63,541 nucleotides of DNA from Oscillospiraceae bacterium (lineage in GTDB: Bacteria > Bacillota > Clostridia > Oscillospirales > Oscillospiraceae), in the NCBI GenBank assembly GCA_017410425.1, contig JAFQQV010000058.1:1-63541 (forward strand). Direction: 5' to 3'. Of the stretch, positions 7,531 to 31,260 are shown one piece after another (within the stretch, counting starts at the first letter, position 1; each line of letters opens with the position of its first letter). Position numbers and translations under genes: made by a program. The notes beneath the pieces were generated by a model. That model did not search any database. It was given only the letters and a program-made list of their open reading frames with translations, and was not told the DNA's origin.

Positions 7531-8741
7531 TTCCTGCACGGGATCACCTCCATTAAAGAATCCAAGAAAACAAAAACCGCATGGAATCCCTTCCACACGG
7601 TTGCTTTGGCTGGGCCAATGCCCACCGTTAAATAATTATACAACAAAATTCGTTGTTTTTCAATGCAACCGCTAGATATAGTCATTATATTATTTAATTT
7701 CGACACAACTTCCATCTGTGTGGAAGGAAATACGTGCGCATGACGATAAGTTATATCAATGCTCTCGTGACCAACGCGATCAGCGATAGCTACAGCCGAG
7801 AAGCCCATATCAATTAGCAGGCTGATGTGGCTATGTCGGATTCCGTGGATTCGAATGCGCTTCACTCCGCTTGCTGCACAGCCACGGCGTATTTCAGGAT
7901 GCAAATAGGATTTCGTAAATGGGAATATACGGTCATTTTCGTTGAGTCGCAACGATTCTATATAAGCCATCATCCTATCCGCATAGAAGTCCGGCATGAG
8001 GACGCGTCGGATTCCTTTCTCAGTTTTTGGTGGTGTGATAATGTCCTCGCCTTTTATTCGTTGAAAGGATTTTGTGACGTATATAATCTTCCGTTCAAAA
8101 TCAAAATCTGCAGGTGTCAGTGCAAGCATCTCGCCAGGCCGCAGATCACACCAATAAAGCGTTTCAAATGCGTAATAAGAAGCGGGCTTACCTTTCAATG
8201 TTTCGATAAACTGTAGATATTCATCTTTCGTCCATACAAGCACCTCACCGCATTTCTCTTTGCCCATATTACCGGCTTTCGCGGCAGGGTTCTCCGGCAA
8301 ACCATAAAAACGCTCAGCATGATTGAACATGGCGCTGAGCTGATTATGAATCGTTTTAAGGTAAACAGGCGAATATGGCATTCCGTTTTCATTCGTTGTT
8401 TCCATGATGATATTTTGCCAATGGAGCACGTCCACCGGCTTCACATCACGTACACGCTCGTCTCCAAAAAACGGTAGGATTTTCTTTTCGATGATACGGC
8501 TCTTTGTCACCCAAGTGTTTTGTCGTATGCGATTCTGCAGGTCGTTCCGATAGACCTCGTAGAATGAGTTGAAGGTCATATCCAAGCTTCCTGCGGATTT
8601 TTGAAGAAACTCTCGTTCCCATGCCAGCGCATCTTTCTTTGTGATAAATCCTCTCTTGGTTTTGCGGGATGGTTCTCCCAGCCAGTTCTTATAGCGGACG
8701 GACACATACCAACGTCCGCCTTTGTCTTTGTAAGCACCCAT
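7527..8741 (-). CDS. Tyrosine-type site-specific integrase
   Basis: This 404-residue recombinase has an N-terminal AP2-like arm-binding region (KGGRWYVSVRYKNWLG), a SAM-like core-binding domain (residues about 55-160) and a catalytic domain with the Arg in CDLRPGEMLAL, the HGIRHSH box and the Tyr nucleophile in DITYRHAHVF. It resembles Tn916/phage-type integrases of Firmicutes. The start is placed at MGAYKDKGGRW because AGGAGGG lies upstream; the longer open frame has no ribosome site. An unusual tail of about 55 residues follows the usual end near SKLNN and overlaps the next gene by four bases. It probably integrates the element at guaA. Confidence 0.85.
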   Translation of the reverse strand: MGAYKDKGGRWYVSVRYKNWLGEPSRKTKRGFITKKDALAWEREFLQKSAGSLDMTFNSFYEVYRNDLQNRIRQNTWVTKSRIIEKKILPFFGDERVRDVKPVDVLHWQNIIMETTNENGMPYSPVYLKTIHNQLSAMFNHAERFYGLPENPAAKAGNMGKEKCGEVLVWTKDEYLQFIETLKGKPASYYAFETLYWCDLRPGEMLALTPADFDFERKIIYVTKSFQRIKGEDIITPPKTEKGIRRVLMPDFYADRMMAYIESLRLNENDRIFPFTKSYLHPEIRRGCAASGVKRIRIHGIRHSHISLLIDMGFSAVAIADRVGHESIDITYRHAHVFPSTQMEVVSKLNNIMTISSGCIEKQRILLYNYLTVGIGPAKATVWKGFHAVFVFLDSLMEVIPCRK

Positions 8742-8916
8742 AAAATGCCCTCCTGAAATAATATATTTAGTACCAATCGGTGTACCAACTGCATCAAAAG
8801 TGGGAACTCCAAAGCCAGTTGACACTACTTTTCGCAGTACCAAATAAATTCTCCAAAATGGGCAGCGACAGCGTGATATCGCCCGATTTTCTCTGAAAAG
8901 TCCCAAGATGTAAGAA

Positions 8917-8952
8917 ATCCGCTCACCTTTACTCGCATAAGGGTGAGCGGAT
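8917..8952. other. Perfect hairpin in the element's right end (8,742-9,110 has no gene)
   Basis: ATCCGCTCACC and GGTGAGCGGAT form an 11-bp stem with a 14-base loop, upstream of the integrase start. The 370 bases between integrase and guaA hold this hairpin, one TTTGGTATCAA repeat (8983-8993) and CTCAGAGAACTGAG-type inverted repeats close to attR. No gene is visible. Its role could be regulation of the integrase or an att-region structure. Confidence 0.6.
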
Positions 8953-9110
8953 CACTATAAAGCCACTTGAAATAATTCTGTTTTTGGTATCAAATTGACC
9001 TCAGTTCAAACTCCAATTCTTGAGAATGTGGAGAAAACACGAGATAAATCGAGCTTTTTTGAGAAAAATGAGGCTTTGTGAGACCTCAGAGAACTGAGAG
9101 AATTTTGACC

Positions 9111-9124
9111 TTTATTCCCACTCG
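9111..9124. repeat. attR of the element, within the guaA 3' end
   Basis: TTTATTCCCACTCG contains the guaA stop codon and last codons and pairs with the attL copy. The integration event leaves guaA intact. Confidence 0.75.
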
Positions 9125-10092
9125 ATGGTGCCGATGGGCTTGGGGGTCAGGTCGTAGAGGACGCGGTTGATGCCGTCCACTTCGTGGGTGATGCGCTCGG
9201 TAATGTGCTGCAGCAGCTCGAAGGGGATGTTCTCAACGGTGGCGGTCATAGCATCCATGGTGTTGACGGCGCGGATGATGGCGGGCCAACCTTCGTAACG
9301 CTTGCCGTCCTTGACGCCGACGGACTTCATGTCGGGGACAGCGATAAAGTACTGCCATACCTTGCCGGCAAGGCCGTTCTTATCAAACTCTTCGCGCAGG
9401 ATAGCATCAGCCTCACGCAGAGCGTGCAGACGGTCGCGGGTAATGGCACCCAGGCAGCGGACACCCAGGCCGGGGCCGGGGAAGGGCTGACGGTAGACCA
9501 TGCCGTGGGGCAGACCCAGAGCATCGCCGACAACGCGGACTTCGTCCTTATACAGCAGCTTGACAGGCTCAACCAGCTCAAACTGCATATCCTCAGGCAG
9601 ACCGCCAACATTGTGGTGAGCCTTGACACCGTCAGATTCCAGAATGTCGGGGTAGATGGTGCCCTGAGCGAGGAAACCGATGCCGTTGAGCTTGGCAGCT
9701 TCTTCGTCAAAGACCTTTATAAACTCAGCGCCGATGATCTTGCGCTTCTTCTCAGGCTCACTGACACCGGCCAGCAGATCGAGGAAACGGTCGGTAGCAT
9801 CGACATAGACAAGGTTTGCATCCAGCTGCTTACCGAAAACTTCGATAACCTGTTCGCTCTCACCCTTACGCATGAGACCATGGTTGACATGGACGCAGGT
9901 GAGCTGCTTGCCGATGGCCTTGATAAGCAGGGCAGCAACAACGGAGGAGTCAACACCGCCGGAGAGGGCGAGCAGGACCTTGCCGTCGCCAACCTGGGCG
10001 CGGATCTCTTTTATCTGTTCATCAATAAAAGCATTTGCCAGTTCAAGAGTAGTGATACGCTGCATAGATTCAGGGCGTACATTACCGGACAT
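9112..10092 (-). CDS. guaA: GMP synthase, ATP-pyrophosphatase subunit (no glutaminase domain)
   Basis: This 326-residue protein carries the N-type PP-loop LALSGGVDSSV near residue 45 and the GuaA C-terminal dimerisation domain with RQPFPGPGLGVRC and the end KPIGTIEWE. It amidates XMP to GMP using ammonia. Ordinary bacterial GuaA is about 510 residues with an N-terminal class I glutamine amidotransferase. Here that domain is absent and no amidotransferase gene is adjacent. This is the split arrangement known from archaea and some bacteria, so a partner must be elsewhere or free ammonia is used. Start chosen at the second ATG (MSGNVRPES) because GGAAGG sits nine bases before it. Confidence 0.85.
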   Translation of the reverse strand: MSGNVRPESMQRITTLELANAFIDEQIKEIRAQVGDGKVLLALSGGVDSSVVAALLIKAIGKQLTCVHVNHGLMRKGESEQVIEVFGKQLDANLVYVDATDRFLDLLAGVSEPEKKRKIIGAEFIKVFDEEAAKLNGIGFLAQGTIYPDILESDGVKAHHNVGGLPEDMQFELVEPVKLLYKDEVRVVGDALGLPHGMVYRQPFPGPGLGVRCLGAITRDRLHALREADAILREEFDKNGLAGKVWQYFIAVPDMKSVGVKDGKRYEGWPAIIRAVNTMDAMTATVENIPFELLQHITERITHEVDGINRVLYDLTPKPIGTIEWE

Positions 10093-10200
10093 AGAAATCA
10101 TCCTTCCAAAATAAGAATAGAATTTACTGAAAAATTATACAACTATCTCTAAAACACTGCAAGAAAAAATTTCAGAATAAGCAACAAAAGGAGAGAATAA

Positions 10201-10249
10201 CTCCCTCAGTCTTCGGCTGCCAGCTCCCTCGGAGAGGGAGCCTTTAAAA
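10201..10249. repeat. Partial copy of a palindromic MITE-like repeat
   Basis: Contains GCTCCCTCGGAGAGGGAGCC followed by TTTAAAA, preceded by a CTTCGGCTGCCAG piece. This is the half-element form of the palindromic repeat seen complete near 63,150-63,260. It sits directly beside twin-hairpin repeat copy A. Confidence 0.55.
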
Positions 10250-10250
10250 A

Positions 10251-10363
10251 CCAACTTGAAGCCCAGCGCAGCGGGTTCAAGTTGGAGAGGAAAAACAACA
10301 CCATAAGGTCAACAGCCGCCGCAGTTAAGCGACGGCTGTTGACCTTATGGTGTTGTTTTGACG
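10251..10363. repeat. Twin-hairpin repeat, copy A (also purA terminator)
   Basis: Hairpin 1 has stem CCAACTTGAA/TTCAAGTTGG around the 15-base loop GCCCAGCGCAGCGGG. The linker AGAGG follows. Hairpin 2 is a perfect 27-bp palindrome (10292-10318 with 10333-10359), and the unit ends GACG immediately before the purA stop codon. Read leftward, hairpin 2 is followed by TTTTTCCTCT and would terminate purA. Copies B and C share the loop, linker and end but not the stem sequences. Confidence 0.75.
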
Positions 10364-11641
10364 TCAGAACATGGTGATGTATGCGTCGCGCTCTGCACCG
10401 ACGGAGACATACTTGATGGGGCAGTCAACAGCCTTCTCAATGTAGCGGATGTAGTCCAGAGCTTCCTTGGGCAGGTCTTCAACGGTGCGGCACTTGCTGA
10501 TGTCGCAGTTGAAGCCGGGAACGTACTCATACACGGGCTTTGCGGCGTTGAGCTCGTCAATGTCGGAGGGGAAGTAGTCGATGCGCTGACCGTTTACTTC
10601 GTATGCAACGCAGACGGGGATTTCCTTCATGTAGGACAGAACGTCCATCTTGGTCAGGGCCAGATAGCTGCAGCCCTGCATCAGAGCACCGTAGCGGGAG
10701 GCCACAACGTCGAAACCGCCAACGCGGCGGGGTCTGCCTGTGGCAGCACCGTACTCGCCGCCTGCTGCACGCAGCTCTTCGGCCTCTGCGCCGAACATCT
10801 CACAGGTGAAGGGGCCTTCGCCAACGCAGGAGGAGTAGGCCTTCATGATGCCGATAGACTCATCCAGCTTTGCAAAGGGGATACCGGAGCCGATGGGAGC
10901 GTAGGAAGCCAGAGTGGTGGAGGCGGAGGTGTAGGGGTAGATACCAAAGTCGATATCACGCAGAGCGCCCAGCTGAGCCTCAAAGATGATGGACTTGCCG
11001 TCCTTGATGGCCTTGTTCAGATACTCAGTGGTGTTGCAGACATAGGGAGCAAAGAACTTGCCGTACTCCTCAAGCCATGCCATGATTTCGTCCAGATCAA
11101 CAGGCTCATGGCCGTAGCCCTTTTCAACGGTCAGGTTCTTCCACTCGATAATGCCTTCGAGACGGTCGCGGATGCTGTCAAAATGGAGCAGATCTCCCAT
11201 ACGCAGGGTCTTCTTCATGTACTTGTCGGCGTAGACAGGGGAGATACCGCGGCGGGTGGAGCCGAACTTCTTGTCGCCCAGACGGTCTTCTTCCAGCTCG
11301 TCGAGCATTTTGTGGTAGGGCATGCAGATGGTGGCGCGGTCAGAAATGAGCAGGTGACCGGGCTCAACCTCAACGCCGCCCTCACGCAGCTTCATAACCT
11401 CACCGTAGAGATGCTTGAGGTCGATAACGATGCCGGGGCCGAGAACGTTCACGGTCTCGTCTCTGAGAATGCCGGAAGGCATCAGGTTCATGACGAAGGT
11501 GCCTCTGTCATTGATGACAGTGTGGCCTGCGTTGTTTCCGCCCTGATAGCGAACAACGATGTCATACTTTTCGCTGAGAAGGTCGACCATACGGCCTTTG
11601 CCTTCATCGCCCCAGTTGGTACCCACTATAGAAGTCAACAT
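10364..11641 (-). CDS. purA: Adenylosuccinate synthetase
   Basis: This 425-residue enzyme links IMP and aspartate with GTP to give adenylosuccinate, the first committed step to AMP. The family marks are visible: NWGDEGKGR at the N-terminus (phosphate loop), YQGGNNAGHT, the switch loop STRRGISPVYADK (GTTGRGIGP in most relatives, so slightly divergent), YPYTSAS, GRPRRVGGFD and TKMDVL (GTP base recognition). The start follows an AGGTAAAAAG site. It lies 20 bases after purB in the same direction, so the two AMP-branch enzymes are co-transcribed. Confidence 0.95.
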   Translation of the reverse strand: MLTSIVGTNWGDEGKGRMVDLLSEKYDIVVRYQGGNNAGHTVINDRGTFVMNLMPSGILRDETVNVLGPGIVIDLKHLYGEVMKLREGGVEVEPGHLLISDRATICMPYHKMLDELEEDRLGDKKFGSTRRGISPVYADKYMKKTLRMGDLLHFDSIRDRLEGIIEWKNLTVEKGYGHEPVDLDEIMAWLEEYGKFFAPYVCNTTEYLNKAIKDGKSIIFEAQLGALRDIDFGIYPYTSASTTLASYAPIGSGIPFAKLDESIGIMKAYSSCVGEGPFTCEMFGAEAEELRAAGGEYGAATGRPRRVGGFDVVASRYGALMQGCSYLALTKMDVLSYMKEIPVCVAYEVNGQRIDYFPSDIDELNAAKPVYEYVPGFNCDISKCRTVEDLPKEALDYIRYIEKAVDCPIKYVSVGAERDAYITMF

Positions 11642-11661
11642 ATCTTTTTACCTCTTTCCGT

Positions 11662-13095
11662 TTATACGTTTATCTCAGCCTTGACGCCGATATAATCTTT
11701 GTACTTTTCCAGTACAGGTTTTACGTGTTCATTGAGGAACTTCTCACACTGATGCTCTGCCATGCCGGTGAAGGTGGAGGGATCGGTGAGAGTGTCCAGC
11801 TCTTCCTGAGTGAGGGAGAAGGTATCGTCTGCCATGACGCGCTGGAGAAGGTCATTCTCGCGGCCGTAGAGCTTTACCTGCTCGGCGGCAGCCACGCTGT
11901 GGCGGCGGATAGCTTCGTGCAGAGCCTGGCGGTCGCCGCCCTTGTTCTTGACGCAGTACATGAGGATGTTTTCAGTTGCCATGAAGGGCAGCTCCTCGTT
12001 CATGTGCTTTTCAATAACGGCGGGGTAGACCTTCATACCGCGGACCACATTGATGTACAGGGTCAGAATGGAGTCGCAGGCGAGGAATGCTTCGGGGATG
12101 GAGATGCGGCGATTTGCAGAGTCGTCCAGAGTGCGCTCCAGCCACTGGGCGGAGGCGGTGATGGAGGCGTTCTGCAGGTCGCAGATGATGTAGCGGCTCA
12201 GGGAGGCGATACGCTCAGAGCGCATGGGGTTGCGCTTGTACGCCATGGCGGAGGAGCCGATCTGGCCGGATTCAAAAGGCTCGTCCACTTCCTTGAGGTG
12301 GCTGAGCAGTCTAATATCGCTGGAGAACTTGGAGGCGGACTGGGCAATGCCGCAGAGCACCTGCAGCACGGCATAGTCAACCTTGCGGCTATAGGTCTGG
12401 CCGGTGACACTCTGGCAGGCATCAAAGCCCATCTTTGCAGCGATCCTGCGCTCCAGCTCCTCAACCTTCTCAGCGTCGCCGTCAAAAAGCTCCAGGAAGC
12501 TTGCGCCGGTACCGGTGGTACCCTTGCAGCCAAGAAGCTTCAGATGCTCCAGCTGGAAGTCCAGCTGCTCAATATCAAACAGCAGGTCATTGAGCCAGAG
12601 GGTTGCGCGCTTACCCACGGTGGTGGGCTGGGCGGCCTGGAAATGGGTGAAGGCCAGGGTGGGCTGTGCCTTGTACTTCTCTGCAAACTCGGCAAGGGCC
12701 GCAACTGCGTTTACCAGAAGCTTGCGGATGATGAGCAGGGCACCGTGCATACGGATAATATCGGTATTGTCGCCCACGTAGCAGGAGGTGGCGCCCAGGT
12801 GGATGATGGGCTTTGCCTTGGGGCAGACCTCACCGAAGGTGAGCACATGGGCCATAACGTCGTGACGGACCTTATACTCATGGGCGGCAGCGGTCTTATA
12901 GTCTATATCATAAAGGTGTGCGCGCATTTCGTCAAGCTGTTCGTCAGTAATGTTCAGACCCAGCTCCTGTTCGCTCTCTGCCAGGGCAAGCCAGAGCTTG
13001 CGCCAGGTGGAAAACTTGTTGTCGTCAGAGAACTGACGCTTCATTTCCTCGGTGGCGTAACGGCCGCAGAGGGGATTTTCATAAAACTCATGCAT
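11662..13095 (-). CDS. purB: Adenylosuccinate lyase
   Basis: This 477-residue fumarase/aspartase-superfamily enzyme cleaves adenylosuccinate to AMP and SAICAR to AICAR. The signature loop is GSSAMAYKRNPMRSERI near residue 285 (GSSAMPYKRNP in many relatives). HLGATSCYVGDNTD near residue 105 and TGTGASFLELFDGD carry catalytic and substrate residues. The length suits the longer eukaryote-like branch seen in many Clostridia. It sits between nadE (18 bases) and purA (20 bases) with no terminator on either side. Confidence 0.95.
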   Translation of the reverse strand: MHEFYENPLCGRYATEEMKRQFSDDNKFSTWRKLWLALAESEQELGLNITDEQLDEMRAHLYDIDYKTAAAHEYKVRHDVMAHVLTFGEVCPKAKPIIHLGATSCYVGDNTDIIRMHGALLIIRKLLVNAVAALAEFAEKYKAQPTLAFTHFQAAQPTTVGKRATLWLNDLLFDIEQLDFQLEHLKLLGCKGTTGTGASFLELFDGDAEKVEELERRIAAKMGFDACQSVTGQTYSRKVDYAVLQVLCGIAQSASKFSSDIRLLSHLKEVDEPFESGQIGSSAMAYKRNPMRSERIASLSRYIICDLQNASITASAQWLERTLDDSANRRISIPEAFLACDSILTLYINVVRGMKVYPAVIEKHMNEELPFMATENILMYCVKNKGGDRQALHEAIRRHSVAAAEQVKLYGRENDLLQRVMADDTFSLTQEELDTLTDPSTFTGMAEHQCEKFLNEHVKPVLEKYKDYIGVKAEINV

Positions 13096-13113
13096 GATGT
13101 TTCTCCCTGCCTC

Positions 13114-13845
13114 TCAATCGTACTTATACATGGTGATGGGACGGCGTTTGTGTTCGCTGCGGCTGTGGTAACGGTCTATTATAGCCTTGTCCTCTGCATT
13201 GACTTGGCCGGTGAGAAGATAGGTGTCGATGGCCTTGTAGGTCACACCCATGTCCTGCTCGTCGGTCTGGCCGTCATAGAGGCCGGCGGAAGGGGCCTTG
13301 TCTATGATGCAGCGGGGGGCCTTGAGATACTCGAGAAATTCAAAGACTTCGGTGGCGGTCAGGTCGGAGATGGGATTGAAGTCACATGCACCGTCGCCCC
13401 ACTTGGTGAAGTAGCCCATGTGGCGCTCGGAGCGGTTGCCGGTGCCGGCTACCAGACGGTTTTCTGCAGCGCCGATGGCGTAAAGGGTGGTCATACGCAG
13501 GCGGGGGGCAAGATTTGTCAGCGCCATGTCATTGATGGTGCAGACCTTTTCAAGCTCTTTAAGCTCTGCTTCGCGTACTGCGGTAAGATCCACGGTGCGG
13601 CACTCAATACCATACTGATTTACCAGGGCGTTTGCATCATTGGTGTCGGCCTCATAGTTGCGCCTGGAGGCGCAGGGCATGATGACGCTCAGGGTGTTGT
13701 CGCAGGCGGCCTTGCACAGAATGCCCACAAGGGCACAGTCCTTGCCGCCGGAGTTGCCGAAGACGATGCCGGAGGCGTGGGCGCTTTCAACAAGCTCACG
13801 GATAAAGGCTACTCTGCCTTCAAATTCAGCCTTGTAATCTCTCAT
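13114..13845 (-). CDS. nadE: NAD(+) synthase, ammonia-dependent type
   Basis: This 243-residue N-type ATP pyrophosphatase converts nicotinic acid adenine dinucleotide to NAD. The PP-loop is NSGGKDC (SGGxDS in the consensus, with Cys for the last Ser). GTGNRSERHMGYFTKWGDGACD is split here as GTGNRSE and GYFTKWGDGACD, both typical of NadE. No glutaminase domain is present, so ammonia is the nitrogen donor. It follows the last LRR lipoprotein gene by 27 bases with no terminator, an odd pairing of a housekeeping gene with surface proteins. Confidence 0.9.
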   Translation of the reverse strand: MRDYKAEFEGRVAFIRELVESAHASGIVFGNSGGKDCALVGILCKAACDNTLSVIMPCASRRNYEADTNDANALVNQYGIECRTVDLTAVREAELKELEKVCTINDMALTNLAPRLRMTTLYAIGAAENRLVAGTGNRSERHMGYFTKWGDGACDFNPISDLTATEVFEFLEYLKAPRCIIDKAPSAGLYDGQTDEQDMGVTYKAIDTYLLTGQVNAEDKAIIDRYHSRSEHKRRPITMYKYD

Positions 13846-13872
13846 TTCTTTGTCCTTTCTCAGTGCCCTGAT

Positions 13873-15228
13873 TTAATACAGGGGGTCGTTCCAGTAGAAG
13901 GAGAATGCGGTGGAGGCGTAATCATCAAACTGCTCGCGCAGGAGAATATAACGGTCATGGTAGATATACATATAAGCCAGCTCATTGTAGTCCACATAGC
14001 GCCAGCGTCCGCCGACGGGGTCAATGTATACCTCGGTGTTGATTTCACAGTTGGGTGCGGCGGCCTGCATCTGGGCGACCTGCTCGGCAGGGACGGGGTT
14101 GATGCAGCCGATCCAGAGCCTTTCAAGCTCGGTAAGGCCGTAGAGAGGGGAAATGTCGCAGAGCTCATAATTGTATGCGATGTTCAGGTGGCGCAGGTTC
14201 TTCAGCTCGGAAAGGGGGCTGAGGTCAGTGCAGAGAGTGGTCTGCATTTCAAGATACTCAAGGTTCTTGCAGTTTGCCAGAGGGCTTGCATCGGTCCAGC
14301 AGGCCATGGCCAGGATTGCCACCTCAAGCTTGGACATATAGGCCACAAAGTCAATGTCCCAGAGATCATCGTTATGGCCCAGGTCAAGAAATCTCACATC
14401 GGTGCAGTACTTGAGCACATCGGTATTGTCACCGTTGAGCATGCCGCCCTTGGAGGGAGCAGAGGCCAGAATACGCTCCACATCAGTGCGCACACTGTAG
14501 GCATCGCCGAACCAGATGCGCCAGACAACCTTAACATCGGGATAAGCGTCACGGATGGCGGCCATGTCCTCATTGGAGACACCGCAGGTATCCATGTCCA
14601 GATAAGTCAGATCCGGCATATATGCCATGACCTGCTTTACATATGCGCCGCCGTCGTTGACGGGGACATGGCTGAGGTTTATCTGTGTATTCTGCAGATC
14701 CATCTCTTTTCCGTAAAGATCGAAGAGGTATTTGAACTTTACATCGGGGCAGGCCTGCTTGAGAACATCAATGTCCTCCCAGCCCATGCCGCTGCGCTCG
14801 CTGCCAAGCTCTATGCTTTCAAGCTCAGGCAGATAGCGGAGCACTTCGGCGGCGCTGCGGATGTCAGCGCTTCCCATGGCGGAAAGGTCTGCAGATTTGG
14901 CGGAAGTGTCCAGCACTGTACCGTCAGGCAGGGTGACGGTGTAAGTTACCTTGACCTGAGGATTGTTCTGAGCCCAGGCGTAAATCTCATCAACACACTC
15001 ACTGCCGCTGAAGTCTGCGGACTTGAGCGCAGTAAGCTGGTCGAGAAGCTGGGTCTCGCCGCTCTGCAGCACTATTGCAAGCTCGGTGGTGGTATCAATC
15101 TGAAACTCGCCGGCGCTGAGTGTGACGCTGGTGGGAACTGCAGGCTCTTCAGGCTTCTTTGAGCAGCCGCAGAGCAGGGCGCAGACGAGGATGATAATAA
15201 GCAAAAGGGAAAATCTTTTTCCGTTCAT
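13873..15228 (-). CDS. Leucine-rich-repeat lipoprotein, tandem paralogue 4
   Basis: This 451-residue exported lipoprotein has signal peptide ending LLCGC with the lipid-anchor Cys. A central block GSERSGMGWEDIDVLKQ...FKYLFDLYGKEMDLQNTQ and a C-terminal LRR region (FLDLGHNDDL, LEYLEMQT, NLRHLNIAYN, DISPLYGLTELERLWIG) follow. The end is FYWNDPLY. It is about half identical by eye to the next gene upstream. Internalin-like LRRs usually bind protein or glycan partners at the cell surface; the ligand is unknown. It is the last of four paralogues and is followed by nadE. Confidence 0.8.
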   Translation of the reverse strand: MNGKRFSLLLIIILVCALLCGCSKKPEEPAVPTSVTLSAGEFQIDTTTELAIVLQSGETQLLDQLTALKSADFSGSECVDEIYAWAQNNPQVKVTYTVTLPDGTVLDTSAKSADLSAMGSADIRSAAEVLRYLPELESIELGSERSGMGWEDIDVLKQACPDVKFKYLFDLYGKEMDLQNTQINLSHVPVNDGGAYVKQVMAYMPDLTYLDMDTCGVSNEDMAAIRDAYPDVKVVWRIWFGDAYSVRTDVERILASAPSKGGMLNGDNTDVLKYCTDVRFLDLGHNDDLWDIDFVAYMSKLEVAILAMACWTDASPLANCKNLEYLEMQTTLCTDLSPLSELKNLRHLNIAYNYELCDISPLYGLTELERLWIGCINPVPAEQVAQMQAAAPNCEINTEVYIDPVGGRWRYVDYNELAYMYIYHDRYILLREQFDDYASTAFSFYWNDPLY

Positions 15229-15246
15229 CGGGAATCCTCCGAAAAA

Positions 15247-16593
15247 TCAATAAAGGGGATCATTCCAGTGGAATGAGAAGGCGCTGTCCTTATATTCGCC
15301 GAACTGCTTGCGCAGCACATAGTAGCGGTAGTTCCAGGTGCCATTACCGTTGTAGCGCCATTTTTCGCCGGTGGGGTCATCGTAGACGCTGGTATTGATT
15401 TCGCAGTTGGGCGCGGCCTTCTGCATTTCTTCCACCTGTTCCCAGGGCACCATATTGTTACTGCCGATGTAGAGCCTTTCAAGCTCTGTGAGCTCATAGA
15501 GGGGGGAAATGTCGGTAAGGCTTGAGATACCCGCCACGTTCAGATGCCGCAGATTTTTAAGCTCGGAAAGGGGGCTCAGATCAGTGCACTGAGTGGTCTG
15601 CATTTCAAGATACTCAAGCTTGGGGCAGCTGGCAAGGGGGCTTGCATCGCTCCAGCCGTCCATGGCCAGAATGGCCACCTCCAGCTCGGGCATATATTTT
15701 ATAAAGGAAATATCGGTGAGGGTGGGGTTGTGGCCTAGGTCCAGATACTTGACTTCCGTGCAGTATTTGAGATCTGCGCCGCTGATCTGGTCAACAAAGC
15801 CGCCCACGGAGGATTTGGAGGCCAGTATGCGCTCCACATCGGTGCGGACGCTGTAGAGCATCTTGTCACCAAACCAGATGCGCCAGACAAGCTTCACATC
15901 GGGATAAGCATCACGGATGGCGGCCATGTCTTCATTTGAAACACCGCAGCTGTCCATGTCCACATATGTGAGCTTGGGCATGTATGCCATGACTTCCTTC
16001 ACGGCAGCGCCGCCGTCATCCACAGGAATGTGGCTGAGGTTGAGCTGGGTGTTCTGCAGGTCAAAGGCTTTGCCGTAGAGCGTGAACCTGAATCTGTAAT
16101 TTGCCTCGGGGCAGGTCTGCTGGAGATATCCTATGTCCTCCCAGCTCAGGCTGCTGCGCTCCTCACCCAGGTCAATGCTGCCCAGCTTTGGCAGGCAGCG
16201 GAGACTGTCAGCAGCTGCGCGGACCTCAGTACCGGTCATTTTGCTCAGGTCTGCTTTCTTAGTGCCGGTATCGAGCACTGTGCCGTCGGACAGGGTGACG
16301 GTGTAATACACATCTACCTGAGGATTGGCCTGGGCCCAGGCATAGATCTCATCCAGACATTCACTGCCGCTGAAATCGGCGGATTCAAGCTTTGTCAGCC
16401 GCTTGAGCAGCTCAGTCTCACCGGGCTGGAGCTTGATTGTAAGCTCCGTAATATCCTCGGCAATATCCATGTCGGGAGCCTCCGCAAAACGAAGGGGCTT
16501 CTCAGCAGGCTCCTCAGTCTTGCCGCAGCCGGAGAGCGCAAGGCAGAAGCACAGGACAAATGCAAGGCATATAAGAAGTTTGTTTCGGGTCAT
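15247..16593 (-). CDS. Leucine-rich-repeat lipoprotein, tandem paralogue 3
   Basis: This 448-residue lipoprotein has lipobox LALSGC. It has the same order as its neighbour: an SADFSGSECLDEIYAWA segment, the GEERSSLSWEDIGYLQQ block, FRFTLYGKAFDLQNTQL, VWRIWFGDKMLYSVRTDVERILAS, then LRRs (YLDLGHNPTL, LEYLEMQTT, LRHLNVAG, DISPLYELTELERLYIGSN) and the end FHWNDPLY. It lies 18 bases before the next paralogue. Function is unknown; the conserved C-terminal tail after the LRRs (TGEKWRY...LRKQFGEY) is shared by all four and may be a capping domain. Confidence 0.8.
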   Translation of the reverse strand: MTRNKLLICLAFVLCFCLALSGCGKTEEPAEKPLRFAEAPDMDIAEDITELTIKLQPGETELLKRLTKLESADFSGSECLDEIYAWAQANPQVDVYYTVTLSDGTVLDTGTKKADLSKMTGTEVRAAADSLRCLPKLGSIDLGEERSSLSWEDIGYLQQTCPEANYRFRFTLYGKAFDLQNTQLNLSHIPVDDGGAAVKEVMAYMPKLTYVDMDSCGVSNEDMAAIRDAYPDVKLVWRIWFGDKMLYSVRTDVERILASKSSVGGFVDQISGADLKYCTEVKYLDLGHNPTLTDISFIKYMPELEVAILAMDGWSDASPLASCPKLEYLEMQTTQCTDLSPLSELKNLRHLNVAGISSLTDISPLYELTELERLYIGSNNMVPWEQVEEMQKAAPNCEINTSVYDDPTGEKWRYNGNGTWNYRYYVLRKQFGEYKDSAFSFHWNDPLY

Positions 16594-16628
16594 GTATGTT
16601 CCTCCAGAACAATGGGGAAATCAGCCAA

Positions 16629-17846
16629 TTACCAACCGTAGTAGTAGAGAGGATCGTTCCAGATATACGCAAAGTCCCACTCCTCATAGCCAAACTGCTG
16701 GCGGAGCAGCTCGTATCTGGGATGGTAGCCGCCGAAGGCAAAGCGCCATTCTTCCTCAGTGGGATCCTTGGTGGTGTTGTTGACAATACAGTTGGGGGCG
16801 CACTTTCTCATCTCTTCAACCTGAGCGGGATCAACAGGGCAGTGCCAGCCGATGTAGAGCCTTTCAAGCTCGGTAAGGCCGTAGAGGGGAGAAATGTCCC
16901 TGAGTGCAAAGTTATAGCAGACATTGAGGTGTCTGAGATTCTTGAGATTTGCAAAAGGAGTAAGGTCGTGAAGCCTTGAGGTCATGGCCTCCACATACTC
17001 AAGCTTGGGGCAGTCAGCCACGGGGGAGAAATCCTCCACAAAGGTCATGCCCACAATCAGAACCTCAAGATCGGGCATGGAGCGGATGAACTCAATGGTG
17101 TCCAGATAGTTGTTGTGGCCAAGGTCCAGATATTTGACCTTGGTGCAGTACTGCAGGTCCATAACATTTTCGCTGGTAAGCTCACCTGCCTTGCCGGGCA
17201 TGGAGGCGAGAATCTTTTCCACATTGGTGCGGGCAGTGTAGTAATCGGCAAACCAGATACGCCAGACCACTTCCGCATTGGGCAGACTATCGCGGATTTC
17301 TGCCATGCTCTCATTGGAGACACCGCAGCTGTCCATGTCAAGATAAGTCAGATTCTTCATGCAGGCGGTGATCTGCTTTACCAGTGCGCCTTCATCGTCA
17401 ATCTGTATCCACTTTATGTCCATGCTCTCATCGCTGAGATTGAAATCCTTGCCGTAGAGCTGGAACGCGTAGTCTAACACTGCCTGAGGGGCAGCCTCGT
17501 GGATGGCGGTGATGCTGTCCCAGCTAAGGGGATTTTCCTGCTCACTGCCAAGGGCGATGCTTTTTACAGCGGGCATCTTTGCCAGGATTTCGGCGGCCTT
17601 GGCGGCGTCTTCATCACTCAGCCCGGTGAGATCAAGTTCCTCAGCATCATCGCGGTACTCCACACCCATCAGTTCATAATAAACATGGGGGGTGGGGGTA
17701 GGCTCTGGGGTGAGCTCGGGTGTGGGCGCGGCAGTGGCCTCTGCAGCGGGAGCGTCCCCGGCAGTTTCGGATGCACAGCCTGCCAATGCAAGGCAGAGAC
17801 ACAGGGAAAGAACTATATAGAAAATATGTTTAAGGTTTTTTGCCAT
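16629..17846 (-). CDS. Leucine-rich-repeat lipoprotein, tandem paralogue 2
   Basis: This 405-residue lipoprotein has lipobox LALAGC, then a low-complexity linker APTPELTPEPTPTP that would span the cell wall. The first SGSE segment of the other paralogues is missing. One copy of the LGSEQENPLSWDSITAIH block precedes the VWRIWFADYYTARTNVEKI and LRR parts (YLDLGHNNYL, LRHLNVCYN, DISPLYGLTELERLYIGWH). It ends IWNDPLYYYGW. Its ATG overlaps the stop of paralogue 1, indicating translational coupling. Confidence 0.8.
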   Translation of the reverse strand: MAKNLKHIFYIVLSLCLCLALAGCASETAGDAPAAEATAAPTPELTPEPTPTPHVYYELMGVEYRDDAEELDLTGLSDEDAAKAAEILAKMPAVKSIALGSEQENPLSWDSITAIHEAAPQAVLDYAFQLYGKDFNLSDESMDIKWIQIDDEGALVKQITACMKNLTYLDMDSCGVSNESMAEIRDSLPNAEVVWRIWFADYYTARTNVEKILASMPGKAGELTSENVMDLQYCTKVKYLDLGHNNYLDTIEFIRSMPDLEVLIVGMTFVEDFSPVADCPKLEYVEAMTSRLHDLTPFANLKNLRHLNVCYNFALRDISPLYGLTELERLYIGWHCPVDPAQVEEMRKCAPNCIVNNTTKDPTEEEWRFAFGGYHPRYELLRQQFGYEEWDFAYIWNDPLYYYGW

Positions 17847-19483
17847 TATCCGTAGACCTCTTTTCCGTACTGACCGGCGTGCTCAGGGGGCGCTTCAAGA
17901 TCGCAGAGGGGATCAAGCCAGTAGAAGCTGTATTCCTGGTAATCGTAGCCAAGCTGCTGGCGCAGAAGCTGGTATCTTTCAACGTAGTCCCATACGTGGA
18001 TGTTTATATCGTAGCTGTAATAACGCCAGCATTCACCGTGGGGATCCTCGGTGGTGGTGTTTATTTCACAGTTGGGAGCTGCCGCTGCCATTTTCTTGAT
18101 CTGATCCTCAGGCACAGGGGTCTGGCAGCCGACCCAAAGTCTCTCCATGCCGGTGATTCCGTAAAGGGGAGAAATGTCCTTGACGTTGGGGCAGCCGGCG
18201 ATGTTCATGTGCTTTATGGATGTGCAGTTTGCAAGGGGACTGAGATCATCAACAAAGGTGGAGTTAAGCTCCAGATAGTCAAGCTTCGTGAGGTTTTTCA
18301 GCGGGCTTAAATCCGTGACCATGGTCATGGAGATTATCAGTACTTCAAGGTCCGGCATGTTTGCAAGGAAGGAGAAGTCTGCCAGTTCATCATTGTGGCC
18401 CAGGTCCAGATATTTGACCTTGGTGCAGTACTGCAGGGGAGAGGAATCATAAATCATGCCGCCTACAGAGGGCTTGGATGCCAGAATACGCTCCACATCG
18501 GTGCGCACGCTGTAGTTATCGCCGAACCACACACGCCATACTATCTCTATGTCGGGGAAAAGCTTGCACAGATCGCCCATGACTTCATTCTCAACGCCGG
18601 TATCGTCCATGTCCAGATACTTGCAGTTGTTCATGCAGGCCAACACGGAATAAAGGGCCTGGCCCTTATCCTTGGCCTCGATGCCGCGGAAGTCCAGCTT
18701 CTCGCTGTCCAGCGTCAGCTCCTTGCCGTAAAGAGTGAAGCTGTAGCTGAACTTTGCTTCGGGCACGGCAGCCTTGAGCATGGCAATGTCTGTCCACTCA
18801 AGGGAGCTGTTTTTCTCGGAACCAAGCTCAACGGACTTGAGCTTGTTCATGCAGGCGAGAGCTGCAGCAGCATCAAGGGCGTCTTCCTTTTTAAGCTGGC
18901 TGAGGTCAATGCTCTCAGCATCGGCGCTTATGACGTTTCCGCCAATATCAACGCTGAAATCAAAATCAGCATTGGGTGCGGCGGCACGGAGATCGGACAG
19001 TGCGCTCATGTCAAGATCTTCGCCGCCCAGGGTGCCAAGGGTGATCTTTTTTACAGAGTCTGTGCTTTTGAGAGCATCGCTTACTGCGGCCACATCCGCG
19101 GTTTTAAGCCAGCTCAGATCCAGACTTTCGGTGTCGTTTCGGAGCTCATCACCATTGGGCAGGGGAACGGAGTAGATAACCTGCACCTCAGGGTGCTCGG
19201 CAGCCCACAGAGCAATTTCGTTATAGCATTTACTGCCACTGAAATCTGCGGTTTTGAGCTTGCTGAAGTACTTGAGCATTGGTATGTCACGCTCGGTGAT
19301 TACAGTGTCCAGCGTTTCAGCTTCACAGGAGAAGGTACCGCCGGTGAGCTGGACCTTTGCGTTGCCTATAAGATATTCAATTCCACCGGCTGTTTCCCGG
19401 GAGGGGCCGGAAAAGCAAAACAGAAATGTTGCTGCTATAAAAACAAGCGAGAATATTACTTTGATTGTTTTCTTGAAAGACAT
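17846..19483 (-). CDS. Leucine-rich-repeat exported protein, tandem paralogue 1 (longest)
   Basis: This 545-residue protein is the first gene of the leftward operon. The N-terminus MSFKKTIKVIFSLVFIAATF is a signal or anchor segment but lacks a clean lipobox (FLFCFSG), unlike its three paralogues. It carries at least two copies of a unit of about 80 residues (LDLSWLKTADVAAVSDAL... and IDLSQLKKEDALDAAAAL...), each followed by a LG-E...W/L-DIAML-AA-P pattern, before the shared VWRVWFGDNYSVRTDVERI and LRR parts. Extra unit copies explain its length. The end differs (LEAPPEHAGQYGKEVYG). Function is unknown; surface binding is an inference. Confidence 0.8.
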   Translation of the reverse strand: MSFKKTIKVIFSLVFIAATFLFCFSGPSRETAGGIEYLIGNAKVQLTGGTFSCEAETLDTVITERDIPMLKYFSKLKTADFSGSKCYNEIALWAAEHPEVQVIYSVPLPNGDELRNDTESLDLSWLKTADVAAVSDALKSTDSVKKITLGTLGGEDLDMSALSDLRAAAPNADFDFSVDIGGNVISADAESIDLSQLKKEDALDAAAALACMNKLKSVELGSEKNSSLEWTDIAMLKAAVPEAKFSYSFTLYGKELTLDSEKLDFRGIEAKDKGQALYSVLACMNNCKYLDMDDTGVENEVMGDLCKLFPDIEIVWRVWFGDNYSVRTDVERILASKPSVGGMIYDSSPLQYCTKVKYLDLGHNDELADFSFLANMPDLEVLIISMTMVTDLSPLKNLTKLDYLELNSTFVDDLSPLANCTSIKHMNIAGCPNVKDISPLYGITGMERLWVGCQTPVPEDQIKKMAAAAPNCEINTTTEDPHGECWRYYSYDINIHVWDYVERYQLLRQQLGYDYQEYSFYWLDPLCDLEAPPEHAGQYGKEVYG

Positions 19484-19629
19484 GTTTACCCTCGTGATTT
19501 ACATTATATTGCAATTATACAGTATAGCATTCCGGCAGGTCTTTTGCAAGACAGAGGGGAAACTTGTCATACATTTATTTATTATGTCTGGCTGCTGAGA
19601 AAAAATAAAAAAATTTTTCAGAAAAGGTG

Positions 19630-19658
19630 TTGACAAAATTCGAAAGCCATGCTATTAT
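19630..19658 (+). promoter_or_regulatory. Promoter of the tRNA-Asp/tRNA-Thr unit
   Basis: TTGACA and TATTAT are separated by 17 bases, about 25 bases before tRNA-Asp. The sequence upstream is an A/T-rich tract (GAGAAAAAATAAAAAAAT), an UP-element-like feature also present before the tRNA-Gln promoter. Confidence 0.8.
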
Positions 19659-19682
19659 GACCAAGCTGTCAAGCACAAGCGT

Positions 19683-19759
19683 GGCCGCGTGGTTCAGTCG
19701 GTTAGAACGCCGGCCTGTCACGCCGGAGGTCGAGGGTTCAAGTCCCTTCGCGGTCGCCA
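19683..19759 (+). tRNA. tRNA-Asp(GTC)
   Basis: This is a 77-base cloverleaf with acceptor GGCCGCG/CGCGGTC, anticodon loop CTGTCAC (anticodon GTC), T-loop GGTTCAAGTCC and an encoded CCA end. A perfect ATGCCCC/GGGGCAT hairpin lies between it and the next tRNA and may guide processing. Confidence 0.95.
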
Positions 19760-19791
19760 AAACATGCCCCGAATTTCGGGGCATGAACTTT

Positions 19792-19866
<75 letters not shown>

Positions 19867-19867
<1 letters not shown>

Positions 19868-19905
19868 AAAAACCAGTATTCCCGTTTGGGAATGCTGGTT
19901 TTTTC
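19867..19905 (+). terminator. Terminator of the tRNA-Asp/Thr unit
   Basis: ACCAGTATTCCC-GTTT-GGGAATGCTGGT, flanked by AAAAA and TTTTTT, follows the tRNA-Thr CCA at once. Confidence 0.85.
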
Positions 19906-19926
19906 TTGCTTGTTATAACCGGATTG

Positions 19927-20035
19927 CCACCGCAAAGCCCAGCGGAGCGGGTTTGCGGTGGAGAGGAAAAATAATGCCGCCGGTCGATGTGGCGCGGCTT
20001 GCCGTGACACATGACCTTGCGGTGTTATTTTGACG
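19927..20035. repeat. Twin-hairpin repeat, copy B
   Basis: Hairpin 1 is CCACCGCAAA/TTTGCGGTGG around GCCCAGCGGAGCGGG (one base different from the other copies). The linker AGAGG leads to hairpin 2 (AAAATAA.GCCGC.GGTC with GACC..GCGG.GTTATTTT), and the unit ends GACG. Stem bases differ from copies A and C on both sides together, so pairing is kept. It is followed directly by the duplicated tRNA-Thr tail. Confidence 0.75.
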
Positions 20036-20037
20036 AG

Positions 20038-20084
20038 GGGTAGCAGCTCCAAAAAAAGACACTCGTTTGAGTGTCTCTTTTTTG
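20038..20084 (+). repeat. Duplicated tRNA-Thr 3' tail plus second terminator
   Basis: GGGTAGCAGCTCCAAAAAA is identical over 19 bases to the tRNA-Thr 3' end and following A-run. It leads into a new terminator hairpin, AGACACTC-GTTT-GAGTGTCT plus T-run, with the same GTTT loop as the first. No other part of the tRNA is present, so this is a tail duplication and not a tRNA gene. Confidence 0.8.
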
Positions 20085-20105
20085 TTTTCTGCCGCAACCA
20101 TATTA

Positions 20106-20215
20106 CCAAGCCAAAGCCCAGCGCAGCGGGTTTGGCTTGGAGAGGAAAAAGAAAGGAGCATAGCGGAACTTTTGCCCGCAGGGCGAAAGAGAAGCGGTGT
20201 GAGTTTCTTTTGACG
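20106..20215. repeat. Twin-hairpin repeat, copy C
   Basis: Hairpin 1 is CCAAGCCAAA/TTTGGCTTGG around GCCCAGCGCAGCGGG, identical in the loop to copy A. Linker AGAGG and outer hairpin 2 stem AAAAGAAA/TTTCTTTT enclose a smaller TTTGCCC/GGGCGAA hairpin. The unit ends GACG. It is the second unit in tandem after tRNA-Thr. Confidence 0.75.
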
Positions 20216-20256
20216 TGGGCCACCTCCCTTTGCACAAGGGAGGCTTTAAATTTTCC
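20216..20256. repeat. Partial copy of the palindromic MITE-like repeat
   Basis: GGCCACCTCCCTTTGCACAA followed by GGGAGGCTTTAAA is the half-element form of the repeat complete at 63,142-63,264. The remaining 150 bases to the next gene hold only a GGACCGTCC-type hairpin (GTCCTGTGCCC/GGGACGGAC) and the presumed promoter. Confidence 0.55.
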
Positions 20257-20411
20257 GGACCGTCCTGTGCCCTGGCCCGGGACGGACAATTATTGATATT
20301 TAATATGTGCTGTGATATAGTTAAAATGTTAAAAGAGAGAAGCTTTTGGCGGATTCAGATAAGCCACGGAGTGCGTAACATTGAATGATGAAGAAGTAAG
20401 AGGTTCGTCGA

Positions 20412-30690: not shown

Positions 30691-30764
30691 AGCGGGTTTG
30701 TGTAATGGTAGCACACCGGACTCTGACTCCGTTTGTGAGGGTTCGAATCCTTCACCCGCTGCCA
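30691..30764 (+). tRNA. tRNA-Gln(CTG)
   Basis: This is a 74-base cloverleaf with acceptor AGCGGGT/ACCCGCT, anticodon loop CTCTGAC (anticodon CTG), T-loop GTTCGAATCC and an encoded CCA. The last 12 bases recur at 31080-31091. Confidence 0.95.
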
Positions 30765-30801: not shown

Positions 30802-30847
30802 TTTGTGTTGGTGGATTCGAAGCCTCACAAACAATTATGATCAGACT

Positions 30848-30948
30848 CCACACAAAGCCTTGTGCTTTGTGTGGAAAAGGAAGAACGGCCATGACCGAGA
30901 CTGAGGGCAAGCCTGCTTGGACTCAGTCTCCTCAGGGCTGTTCTGACG
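30848..30948. repeat. Divergent twin-hairpin repeat, copy D
   Basis: Hairpin 1 is CCACACAAAG/CTTTGTGTGG with a short seven-base loop in place of the conserved one. After linker AAAAGGA, hairpin 2 pairs AGAACGGCC with GGGCTGTTCT and encloses GAGACTGAG/CTCAGTCTC. The unit ends GACG. The order and sizes match copies A-C, though sequence identity is low. It lies downstream of a tRNA, as do B and C. Confidence 0.5.
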
Positions 30949-31079: not shown

Positions 31080-31130
31080 CACCCGCTGCCACGTCGTCAC
31101 AAGCTACACATTGCTTGTGACGACTTTTTT
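31080..31130 (+). repeat. Duplicated tRNA-Gln 3' tail plus second terminator
   Basis: CACCCGCTGCCA is identical to the tRNA-Gln 3' end. It leads into a perfect 12-bp terminator GTCGTCACAAGC/GCTTGTGACGAC with six T residues. Between copy D and this tail lies about 130 bases of GC-rich inverted repeats and a degraded second T-arm (TGAGGGTTCG). The same arrangement is seen after tRNA-Thr. Confidence 0.7.
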
Positions 31131-31180
31131 ATTTTTCAAATCAAAAAGTCATCCCGCGCTCGTTCCGCTGCGACTCCTTT

Positions 31181-31260
31181 CCAAATTGAAGCCGCTTCGC
31201 TTACGCTTCAATTTGGGGTTATTATGGAAGCTTACCAGAGAATTTTTTTCTCTGGTTTTT
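31181..31260. repeat. Two adjacent hairpins, possible further unit of the tRNA-linked repeat
   Basis: CCAAATTGAAGC/GCTTCAATTTGG (12 bp) is followed by CCAGAGAA/TTCTCTGG with a long T-run. The first stem resembles hairpin 1 of copy A, but its loop is different, so membership in the family is uncertain. No gene lies between tRNA-Gln and the AraC gene. Confidence 0.4.

What the first reader, a model, noticed from the sequence alone, without database searches (positions are those of the whole stretch)
10251..20215. Twin-hairpin repeat with conserved loop and compensated stem changes
Three copies (10251-10363, 19927-20035, 20106-20215) share loop GCCCAGCGCAGCGGG, linker AGAGG and end GACG at the same spacing. 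Their hairpin 1 stems are different but fully paired (CCAACTTGAA, CCACCGCAAA, CCAAGCCAAA). Hairpin 2 also differs yet pairs, up to 27 bp perfect. Covariation within one genome shows that structure, not sequence, is kept. I know no described family with this layout.
Basis: seen in the sequence. Interest (0 to 1): 0.75.

Follow-up and report, generated by a model that had tools for sequence, protein, structure and literature searches.

The report
Folded mobile repeat abutting gene ends
A short folded stretch of DNA without any gene of its own, found in many copies in a group of gut bacteria and in some phages, sits with one end pressed exactly against ordinary genes and sometimes comes with a foreign copy of the gene's end, which makes it look like an undescribed small mobile element.

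Summary
The three copies are real and the claim that structure is kept is right (copy 2 differs by one core base). Two degenerate copies also lie in the window, beside tRNA-Gln. A model of hairpin 1 finds it in 93 of 102 genomes of the genus (1-35 each, own 22) and in 50 of 394 of the order; pattern scans find it in Flavonifractor, Oscillibacter and viral contigs. Hairpin 1: 98.6% of cells paired, 11 of 15 pairs change on both sides; wobbles and folding energies single out the + strand. New: (1) the 3' end (GACG) is flush with conserved genes: 23 of 41 antisense stop codons and 37 of 37 tRNAs lie within 0-4 nt; on the 5' side 5 of 44 and 0 of 11. (2) Sense copies inside gene 3' ends carry a second copy of that end; the two differ mostly synonymously, as in fungal 'mobile ORF' hybrids. 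It behaves like a non-coding homing-type element. Y1, TnpB, IscB and reverse transcriptase do not track it: the enzyme is unknown. No Rfam match; no held paper prints five core strings. RNA guiding is possible, not shown.

The parts
10251..10363 (+). copy 1: hairpin 1 10251-10285 (bulged G and A, GNA cap), linker AGAGGA 10286-10291, hairpin 2 10292-10359 (27 bp without mismatch), end GACG 10360-10363; 3' end flush (0 nt) with the purA stop codon on the other strand
19927..20035 (+). copy 2: hairpin 1 19927-19961, hairpin 2 19968-20031, end GACG 20032-20035
19854..19872 (+). 3' end of the intact tRNA-Thr gene plus A run (D, upstream copy GGGTAGCAGCTCCAAAAAA)
20038..20056 (+). second copy of that tRNA-Thr 3' end (D'), directly after copy 2, followed by another terminator-like hairpin
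20106..20215 (+). copy 3: hairpin 1 20106-20140, hairpin 2 20147-20211, end GACG 20212-20215; its 3' flank was not identified
30847..30948 (+). copy 4, degenerate: hairpin 1 with a short loop (core lost), AAAGGA linker, hairpin 2, end TTCTGACG; followed, by eye, by a tRNA-Gln-like fragment
31092..31216 (-). copy 5, degenerate: hairpin 1 with altered core GCGTAAGCGAAGCGGC, long hairpin 2, end GACGACG
31081..31091 (+). copy of the tRNA-Gln 3' end (ACCCGCTGCCA) flush against the 3' end of copy 5; the tRNA-Gln gene itself is at 30691-30764

Best explanation
It is a family of about 110-nt non-coding mobile elements that works like a homing element. Shown: one strand (+) folds into hairpin 1 (10-bp stem of free sequence, bulged G, CCC/GGG, bulged A, GC-GNA-GC cap), a purine linker and hairpin 2, and ends in GACG; structure is kept while stem sequence changes; the 3' end often lies exactly against conserved gene sequence (stop codons and tRNA 3' ends of opposite-strand genes, 5' ends of tRNA and tmRNA, gene starts in phages) and the 5' side does not; copies inside a gene 3' end carry an own copy of that gene end and leave the homologous end behind them, the two differing mainly at synonymous sites. 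Inferred: the folded strand is recognised near its 3' end; the conserved sequence next to that end gives target identity in the recipient (by homology or as a guide); the 5' side is healed by recombination with the homologous gene carried on the incoming DNA, so the gene survives with a foreign end. The enzyme is unknown and is not one of the four families tested, as far as their present-day distribution tells.
For: Structure. Strand: G.T 50 against A.C 12 in 186 stems under a symmetric filter (24 against 7 without CCCC stems); hairpin 2 folds better on + in 192 of 238, mean z -4.6 against -3.2 with simple shuffles. Spread. Flush 3' side with internal control (ends set by hairpin pairing, 173 of 241 elements kept): antisense stops within 0-4 nt 23 of 41 (17 at exactly 0), tRNAs 37 of 37; 5' side 5 of 44 and 0 of 11. 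An earlier count with the first GACG as end gave 25 of 47 and 39 of 43 against 6 of 59 and 0 of 13, and 0 of 6 for another repeat. The 26 flush stops form 19 clusters of similar flanks (one, L083, is an end misread). Nine copies lie 1-6 nt before the tmRNA start motif. Gene-end duplication anchored within 10 nt of the end: 31 of 231 elements against 5 of 917 mismatched controls (a few of the 31 are tRNA neighbours, palindromes or element arrays). Genes at such duplications include PGK, enolase, TIM, sigma-70, SRP54, flagellin, RNase H, rubrerythrin, SDR and a FAD-dependent protein (Pfam; pieces). Codons of the two ends: 38 synonymous, 11 non-synonymous in 13 chosen loci; 33 to 5 without L145 and L286, where an in-frame indel or a new stop spoils the comparison. 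Empty site: the element is absent from the 330 nt behind purA in the other 25 of 26 readable loci (30 fetched), where for example the next start lies 22, 14 and 14 nt after the stop in G083, G012 and G119. Viral copies lie beside terminase, portal, tape-measure and tail genes (9 of 10 proteins matched).
Against: No movement was observed; everything is comparative. No enzyme found: Y1, TnpB, IscB and RVT_1 do not track the element. No clear promoter: paired -35/-10 sites upstream in 5 of 236 (shuffled 5-11) and TATAAT-like sites in 52 (shuffled 57-74); only TGATATAAT-like sites are above shuffles, 35 against 14-22. The element's body shows next to no match to its own 3' flank (complementary run 5.61 against 5.42-5.56 in five shuffles, identical run 5.78 against 5.64-5.78). 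200 of 231 elements have no anchored duplication, so gene-end exchange is a minority pattern or its trace decays. 18 of 41 antisense stops are not flush. Two duplicated ends are identical (L234, L274). Same-target copies in different species could be vertical inheritance with fast stem change. 77 of 229 3' flanks were not classified by the simple caller, the tmRNA sites among them, and its sense gene starts are not trusted.
Confidence: 0.5

Rival explanations
1. A REP/PATE-like element moved as single-stranded DNA by a Y1 (HUH) transposase of the RAYT or IS200/IS605 kind, which reads the bulged hairpins.
For: Strand-specific hairpins with two extrahelical purines and a precise 3' end; the cap GCGNAGC is of the sequence type known as an extraordinarily stable DNA mini-hairpin (PMC4686876, passages); Y1 genes occur in 56 of 102 genomes.
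Against:: of 20 divergent Y1 loci none has the core (one loose match without a stem, L213); of 30 loci of other Y1 hits one has a core variant about 0.7 kb from the gene (L187). G124 (99% complete, 32 copies), G118 (18), G029 (23) and G018 (18) have elements but no Y1 match. No fixed 5' end was seen.
Confidence: 0.1
2. A host-useful RNA or terminator element: hairpin 2 ends transcription or protects RNA ends, and it is flush with genes because it works as a trailer.
For: Copy 1 has a 27-bp hairpin with A run before and T run after it, right behind the purA stop codon; structure is kept by selection; many copies follow stop codons and tRNA 3' ends on the other strand.
Against: Copies also sit in sense 3-4 nt before tRNA-Pro/Lys (7 of 9) and 1-6 nt before the tmRNA start motif (9 copies), where a terminator would silence the gene; a run of four T within 8 nt before GACG occurs in 14 of 241; gene-end duplications and viral copies are not explained.
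Confidence: 0.17
3. No dedicated enzyme: copies arise rarely and then spread passively when natural transformation or phage recombination, anchored on the conserved gene next to the 3' end, joins the other side illegitimately.
For: Synonymous divergence of the two gene ends, imprecise 5' junctions, arrays in which a new element seems to take the place of the end of an old one at the same gene boundary (by eye), four mobile-element enzymes that do not track the element.
Against: Does not explain why the hairpins are under structural selection, why one strand matters, or why the 3' end is exactly at the gene boundary instead of anywhere in the spacer.
Confidence: 0.18
4. Guide-RNA element: the + strand RNA is a scaffold whose 3' extension, the flanking gene sequence, guides an unknown nuclease to the empty allele (like the omega-RNA of TnpB, recalled).
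For: Scaffold-then-guide order, + strand selection, conserved sequence starting exactly at the 3' end, gene-end remnants of 23-77 nt in 12 of 13 loci, upstream gene end different at synonymous sites.
Against: IscB in 1 of 102 and TnpB over the cut-off in 9 of 102 genomes; no clear promoter; some remnants are identical to the upstream end (L234, L274) and would be self-targets.
Confidence: 0.15

Closest known systems
Fungal mitochondrial mobile ORFs that carry gene C-termini (atp6, atp9, cox2, nad3 hybrids; PMC3630166, passages read)
   Same: Insertion near a gene 3' end that brings a foreign copy of the end; the native end is left downstream; for atp6 one end differs from that of a relative only synonymously; horizontal origin is inferred there.
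   Different: There the insert codes for a homing endonuclease (about 1 kb between the two ends in atp6); here it is about 110 nt, folded, without an ORF, at many different genes.
REP sequences and RAYTs; IS200/IS605 derivatives (recalled; a REP paper seen in a search listing only)
   Same: Short intergenic palindromes, several to many per genome, strand-specific.
   Different: No Y1 gene linked, no fixed head motif seen, the precise side is 3' and lies against genes, arms free in sequence.
Double-hairpin elements of mitochondrial DNA (search listing only)
   Same: Two hairpins in tandem, mobile-looking (recalled).
   Different: Organelle genomes; the flush 3' end and the core seen here are not known to me for them (recalled).
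HEARO / IscB and TnpB omega-RNA elements (recalled; a HEARO paper seen in a search listing only)
   Same: Structured non-coding element whose flank may identify the target.
   Different: Nuclease families rare or absent in this genus; no Rfam model but tRNA reaches its cut-off in the window.

Membership tests
REP/RAYT or IS200/IS605 non-autonomous element | linked or co-occurring Y1 transposase | tested here: not met
   core at 0 of 20 divergent Y1 loci and a variant about 0.7 kb away at 1 of 30 others; G124, G118, G029, G018 have 18-32 copies and no Y1 match
REP/RAYT or IS200/IS605 non-autonomous element | strand-specific bulged hairpin | tested here: met
Any described structured RNA family (Rfam 15) | match at the curated score | tested here: not met
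   on the whole window (three tRNAs only); on 19880-20260 at relaxed threshold: 9 matches, all below their cut-offs, best E 0.06
TnpB or IscB omega-RNA element | cognate nuclease in the genome | tested here: not met
   IscB 1 of 102, TnpB over cut-off 9 of 102 (15 at E <= 1e-3), element 93 of 102
Retroelement (group II intron, retron, DGR) | reverse transcriptase in element-bearing genomes | tested here: not met
   PF00078 only: none in G118, G018, G116, G023 (6-19 copies each); two in G124; one weak match below cut-off in G029
Homing element with gene-end exchange (mORF type) | two copies of the gene end, diverged at synonymous sites | tested here: met
   in a minority of elements
Homing element with gene-end exchange (mORF type) | encoded homing endonuclease | tested here: not met
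   elements are about 110 nt; within the fetched loci (mostly 3 kb, at most 6 kb upstream) distant repeats of the 3' flank were tRNA paralogues or serial elements
Miniature inverted-repeat transposon (MITE) | terminal inverted repeats and short constant target duplication | tested here: not met
   window copies fold as two separate hairpins, no pair of terminal arms; duplications are gene ends of variable length
Integron attC site | R and L boxes and an IntI integrase | not tested
   neither boxes nor integrase were searched

The most novel reading that the evidence does not exclude
A non-coding guide-RNA homing element: the + strand RNA forms the twin-hairpin scaffold, the conserved gene sequence directly behind GACG serves as guide, and a nuclease unrelated to the families tested (TnpB, IscB, Y1, reverse transcriptase) cuts the empty allele in relatives and phages, whose repair copies the element together with a gene end that differs from the guide.
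Probability: 0.15. Interest if true: 0.92.

Novelty: new variant of a known kind. Interest (0 to 1): 0.7.

Why it matters
It is present in 93 of 102 genomes of one genus of gut-type bacteria and in viral contigs, yet Rfam does not hold it and the searched papers do not print its core. Its exact 3' contact with conserved genes and the exchange of gene ends make horizontal exchange of core genes visible at base resolution. If the target is read through the flank, it would point to an undescribed sequence-directed mobility system without a linked enzyme; if it is only recombination, it shows how a tiny folded DNA can persist without one.

Tried and rejected
Rejected or not supported: Rfam family; RAYT/IS200; IscB and TnpB; reverse transcriptase as a common need; a consistent neighbour gene (of 1107 ORFs around 241 elements the largest similarity cluster spans 7 loci and looks like a spurious frame; a serine-recombinase-like cluster spans 5 loci at differing distances); a larger autonomous version; programming of the hairpins by the flank; a clear promoter just upstream (where one of three motif tests was above shuffles); related DNA in the annotated phage and plasmid collections (6 and 8 records, short pieces at E 0.3-1, chance level).

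Dropped rows and biases: the element sets need the core and a GACG at the right distance, and one search also a stem of 6 or more; the stem statistics were therefore repeated without a stem filter (203 hairpins, 17 with 6 or fewer pairs, which probably include chance hits in GC-rich genomes). The first strand-bias count used the filtered set and is replaced; one search also used it and is cited only for core variants. Searches took the first GACG as the end; one search set ends by hairpin pairing, changed 35 of 241, and dropped elements with weak pairing (173 kept). Loci for searches were chosen by me from the best duplications. One search scored at most 16 candidates per genome (own genome 14 there, 22), so its counts are low. 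Genomes are unnamed, many are incomplete, and related species are not independent. The outputs were cut; of 54 only what one search prints is used (31 candidate empty sites, many of them element arrays rather than empty sites).

A motif CT before and G after the insertion point in many duplications was read by eye and not tested; it is left out of the argument. Clusters are by flank similarity and may merge similar tRNAs or split orthologous genes.
Full report
What was checked. The three copies were read in the window. They lie at the stated places; copy 2 differs by one base in the conserved stretch. Each copy folds as two hairpins: hairpin 1 with a 10-bp stem, a bulged G, CCC/GGG, a bulged A and a GC-GNA-GC cap, then the linker AGAGGA, hairpin 2 and the end GACG. 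The core therefore is not an open loop. GNA and GNNA loops with at least two G-C pairs are described as extraordinarily stable DNA mini-hairpins (PMC4686876, passages read); both loop lengths occur here (core variants), and in alignment A1 one copy has an A-T pair in place of the upper G-C pair.

Spread. Exact core: 8 in the own genome; with TT added in 24 of 60 genomes, own included, all of the same genus (24 of 37), and in 0 of 23 genomes of other families. Whole-element pattern: 57 of 102 genomes of the genus, reversed control pattern 0. A covariance model of hairpin 1 (46 sequences) finds E <= 1e-5 matches in 93 of 102 genomes of the genus, 1 to 35 each, own genome 22, and in 50 of 394 genomes of the order: 27 of 43 of the same family by the listing and 23 in eight other families. 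Of viral contigs, 37 stretches carry the core with AA and TT; those with a whole element lie, where proteins were tested, beside terminase, portal, tape-measure, tail and other virion genes (9 of 10 proteins). In the window the model adds two degenerate copies near tRNA-Gln.

Structure is selected. On 46 diverse copies 98.6% of 690 cells pair, 11 of 15 pairs change on both sides, slid structures pair in 28-48%. Without any stem filter 186 of 203 distinct hairpins have at least 8 of 10 stem pairs. Elements at similar targets in different species have different but paired stems: 13 elements in the largest cluster of similar tRNA flanks have 11 arm pairs, 8 at tmRNA have 6. Wobbles tell the strand: under a symmetric filter 50 G.T against 12 A.C on +, and hairpin 2 is more stable on + in 192 of 238. 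Selection thus seems to act on the + single strand, as RNA or ssDNA, not on a cruciform.

Where the 3' end lies. With ends set by hairpin pairing (173 of 241 elements kept) an antisense stop codon follows within 60 nt in 41, 23 of them at 0-4 nt and 17 at exactly 0; tRNA genes follow in 37, all at 0-4 nt. The 5' side of the same elements gives 5 of 44 and 0 of 11. With the first GACG as end the figures were 25 of 47 and 39 of 43 against 6 of 59 and 0 of 13, and another repeat of the same loci gave 0 of 6. The 26 flush stops, one of them (L083) a misread end, form 19 clusters of similar flanks. Nine copies stand 1-6 nt before the tmRNA start motif in sense. Copy 1 is flush with the purA stop; of 30 purA loci fetched from the genus 26 could be read, and the other 25 have no element in the 330 nt behind purA; in G083, G012 and G119 the next start follows after 22, 14 and 14 nt.

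Exchange of gene ends. In 31 of 231 elements the sequence right behind the 3' end recurs upstream of hairpin 1, against 5 of 917 mismatched pairs; a few of the 31 are tRNA neighbours, a palindrome or element arrays. In the sense insertions the order is gene body, gene end D, spacer S (1-54 nt, once 177 with another element in it), element, second end D' (23-77 nt to the end of its stop codon in 12 of 13; L286 has an earlier stop), and, in those I read, a terminator-like hairpin after D'. The genes include PGK, enolase, triosephosphate isomerase, sigma-70, SRP54, flagellin, RNase H, rubrerythrin, SDR and a FAD-dependent protein. The differences between D and D' are mostly synonymous: 38 to 11 in 13 chosen loci, 33 to 5 in the 11 that can be compared cleanly; two of them (L234, L274) are identical. 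A plain target duplication followed by decay of D' should give mostly non-synonymous differences, so D' was recently a working gene end: the two ends most likely come from diverged alleles. Copy 2 of the window has this form with the tRNA-Thr 3' end (19854-19872 and 20038-20056). The layout resembles fungal mitochondrial gene hybrids made by endonuclease-coding mobile ORFs (PMC3630166, passages). Arrays suggest, by eye, that a new element can take the place of the end of an old one at the same gene boundary.

Mechanism. Committed reading, 0.5: a non-coding homing-type element. Recognition of the folded + strand near GACG and target identity through the conserved 3' flank are inferred; recombination between diverged alleles follows from the codon pattern. 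Machinery: IscB in 1 of 102 genomes, TnpB over cut-off in 9 of 102, Y1 in 56 of 102; none of the three has a match in G124, G118, G029 or G018, which have 32, 18, 23 and 18 copies. Reverse transcriptase (PF00078) is missing from G118, G018, G116 and G023, present in G124, doubtful in G029. No neighbour gene recurs, no larger version was found in the fetched loci, and no clear promoter: one of three motif tests (TGATATAAT-like, 35 of 236 against 14-22 in shuffles) was above chance, the other two were not, nor were paired sites. So the enzyme is unknown, encoded elsewhere, or not needed.

Novelty. No Rfam family but tRNA reaches its cut-off in the window (relaxed search of copies 2 and 3). Paper searches for five core strings (0 papers), and listings for intergenic palindromes, double-hairpin elements, omega-RNA and HEARO and repeats in these genera, showed no description; I read passages of two papers only, and the library lacks most subscription papers and all preprints. 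Short palindromic repeats are a known kind; this layout, the flush 3' side and the gene-end exchange make it a new variant. It would become categorically new only if the guide reading holds.

Noticed in passing
L101, L121, L146, L090, L105: Another structured element of about 130 bp sits at tRNA 3' ends: it follows about 21 nt of a tRNA 3' end, has about three hairpins (CTTGCATT......GGTATTC......CAGCCC..GGGCTG...) and in several loci ends in an arm complementary to the tRNA T-arm side (for example GAGAGGATTCG...CGAATCCTCTC). Its arms change with the tRNA. Read by eye, not identified.
   Followed up: partly
window 10201-10243 and 20221-20244: Short palindromic repeats of another kind (CTCCCTC...GAGGGAG; CTCCCTTTGCACAAGGGAG) lie next to copies 1 and 3; the first kind was used as a small control, neither was classified.
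   Followed up: partly
window 13873-19483 (-): Four tandem ORFs (451, 448, 405, 545 aa) that look like paralogous lipoproteins with leucine-rich-like repeats; not annotated.
   Followed up: no
window 7527-10101 (-): An ORF that looks like a tyrosine recombinase (7527-8906) lies directly behind an ORF (9112-10101) that looks like the synthetase part of guaA only, while several relatives have what looks like the glutaminase start of guaA right behind purA. Possible integrative element at the guaA end.
   Followed up: no
L348, L219, L255, L224, L134, L146 upstream of hairpin 1: Subfamilies seem to share a box just 5' of hairpin 1 (TGCACCCAAAA, CTCYCGTA, GGGGNCCCC, CTTTACACTAAAGATGCC), read by eye; it may mark the 5' end.
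   Followed up: no
L217 7149-7595: Two elements in series at one pgk gene end with several copies of parts of that end, like serial insertions at one site.
   Followed up: partly
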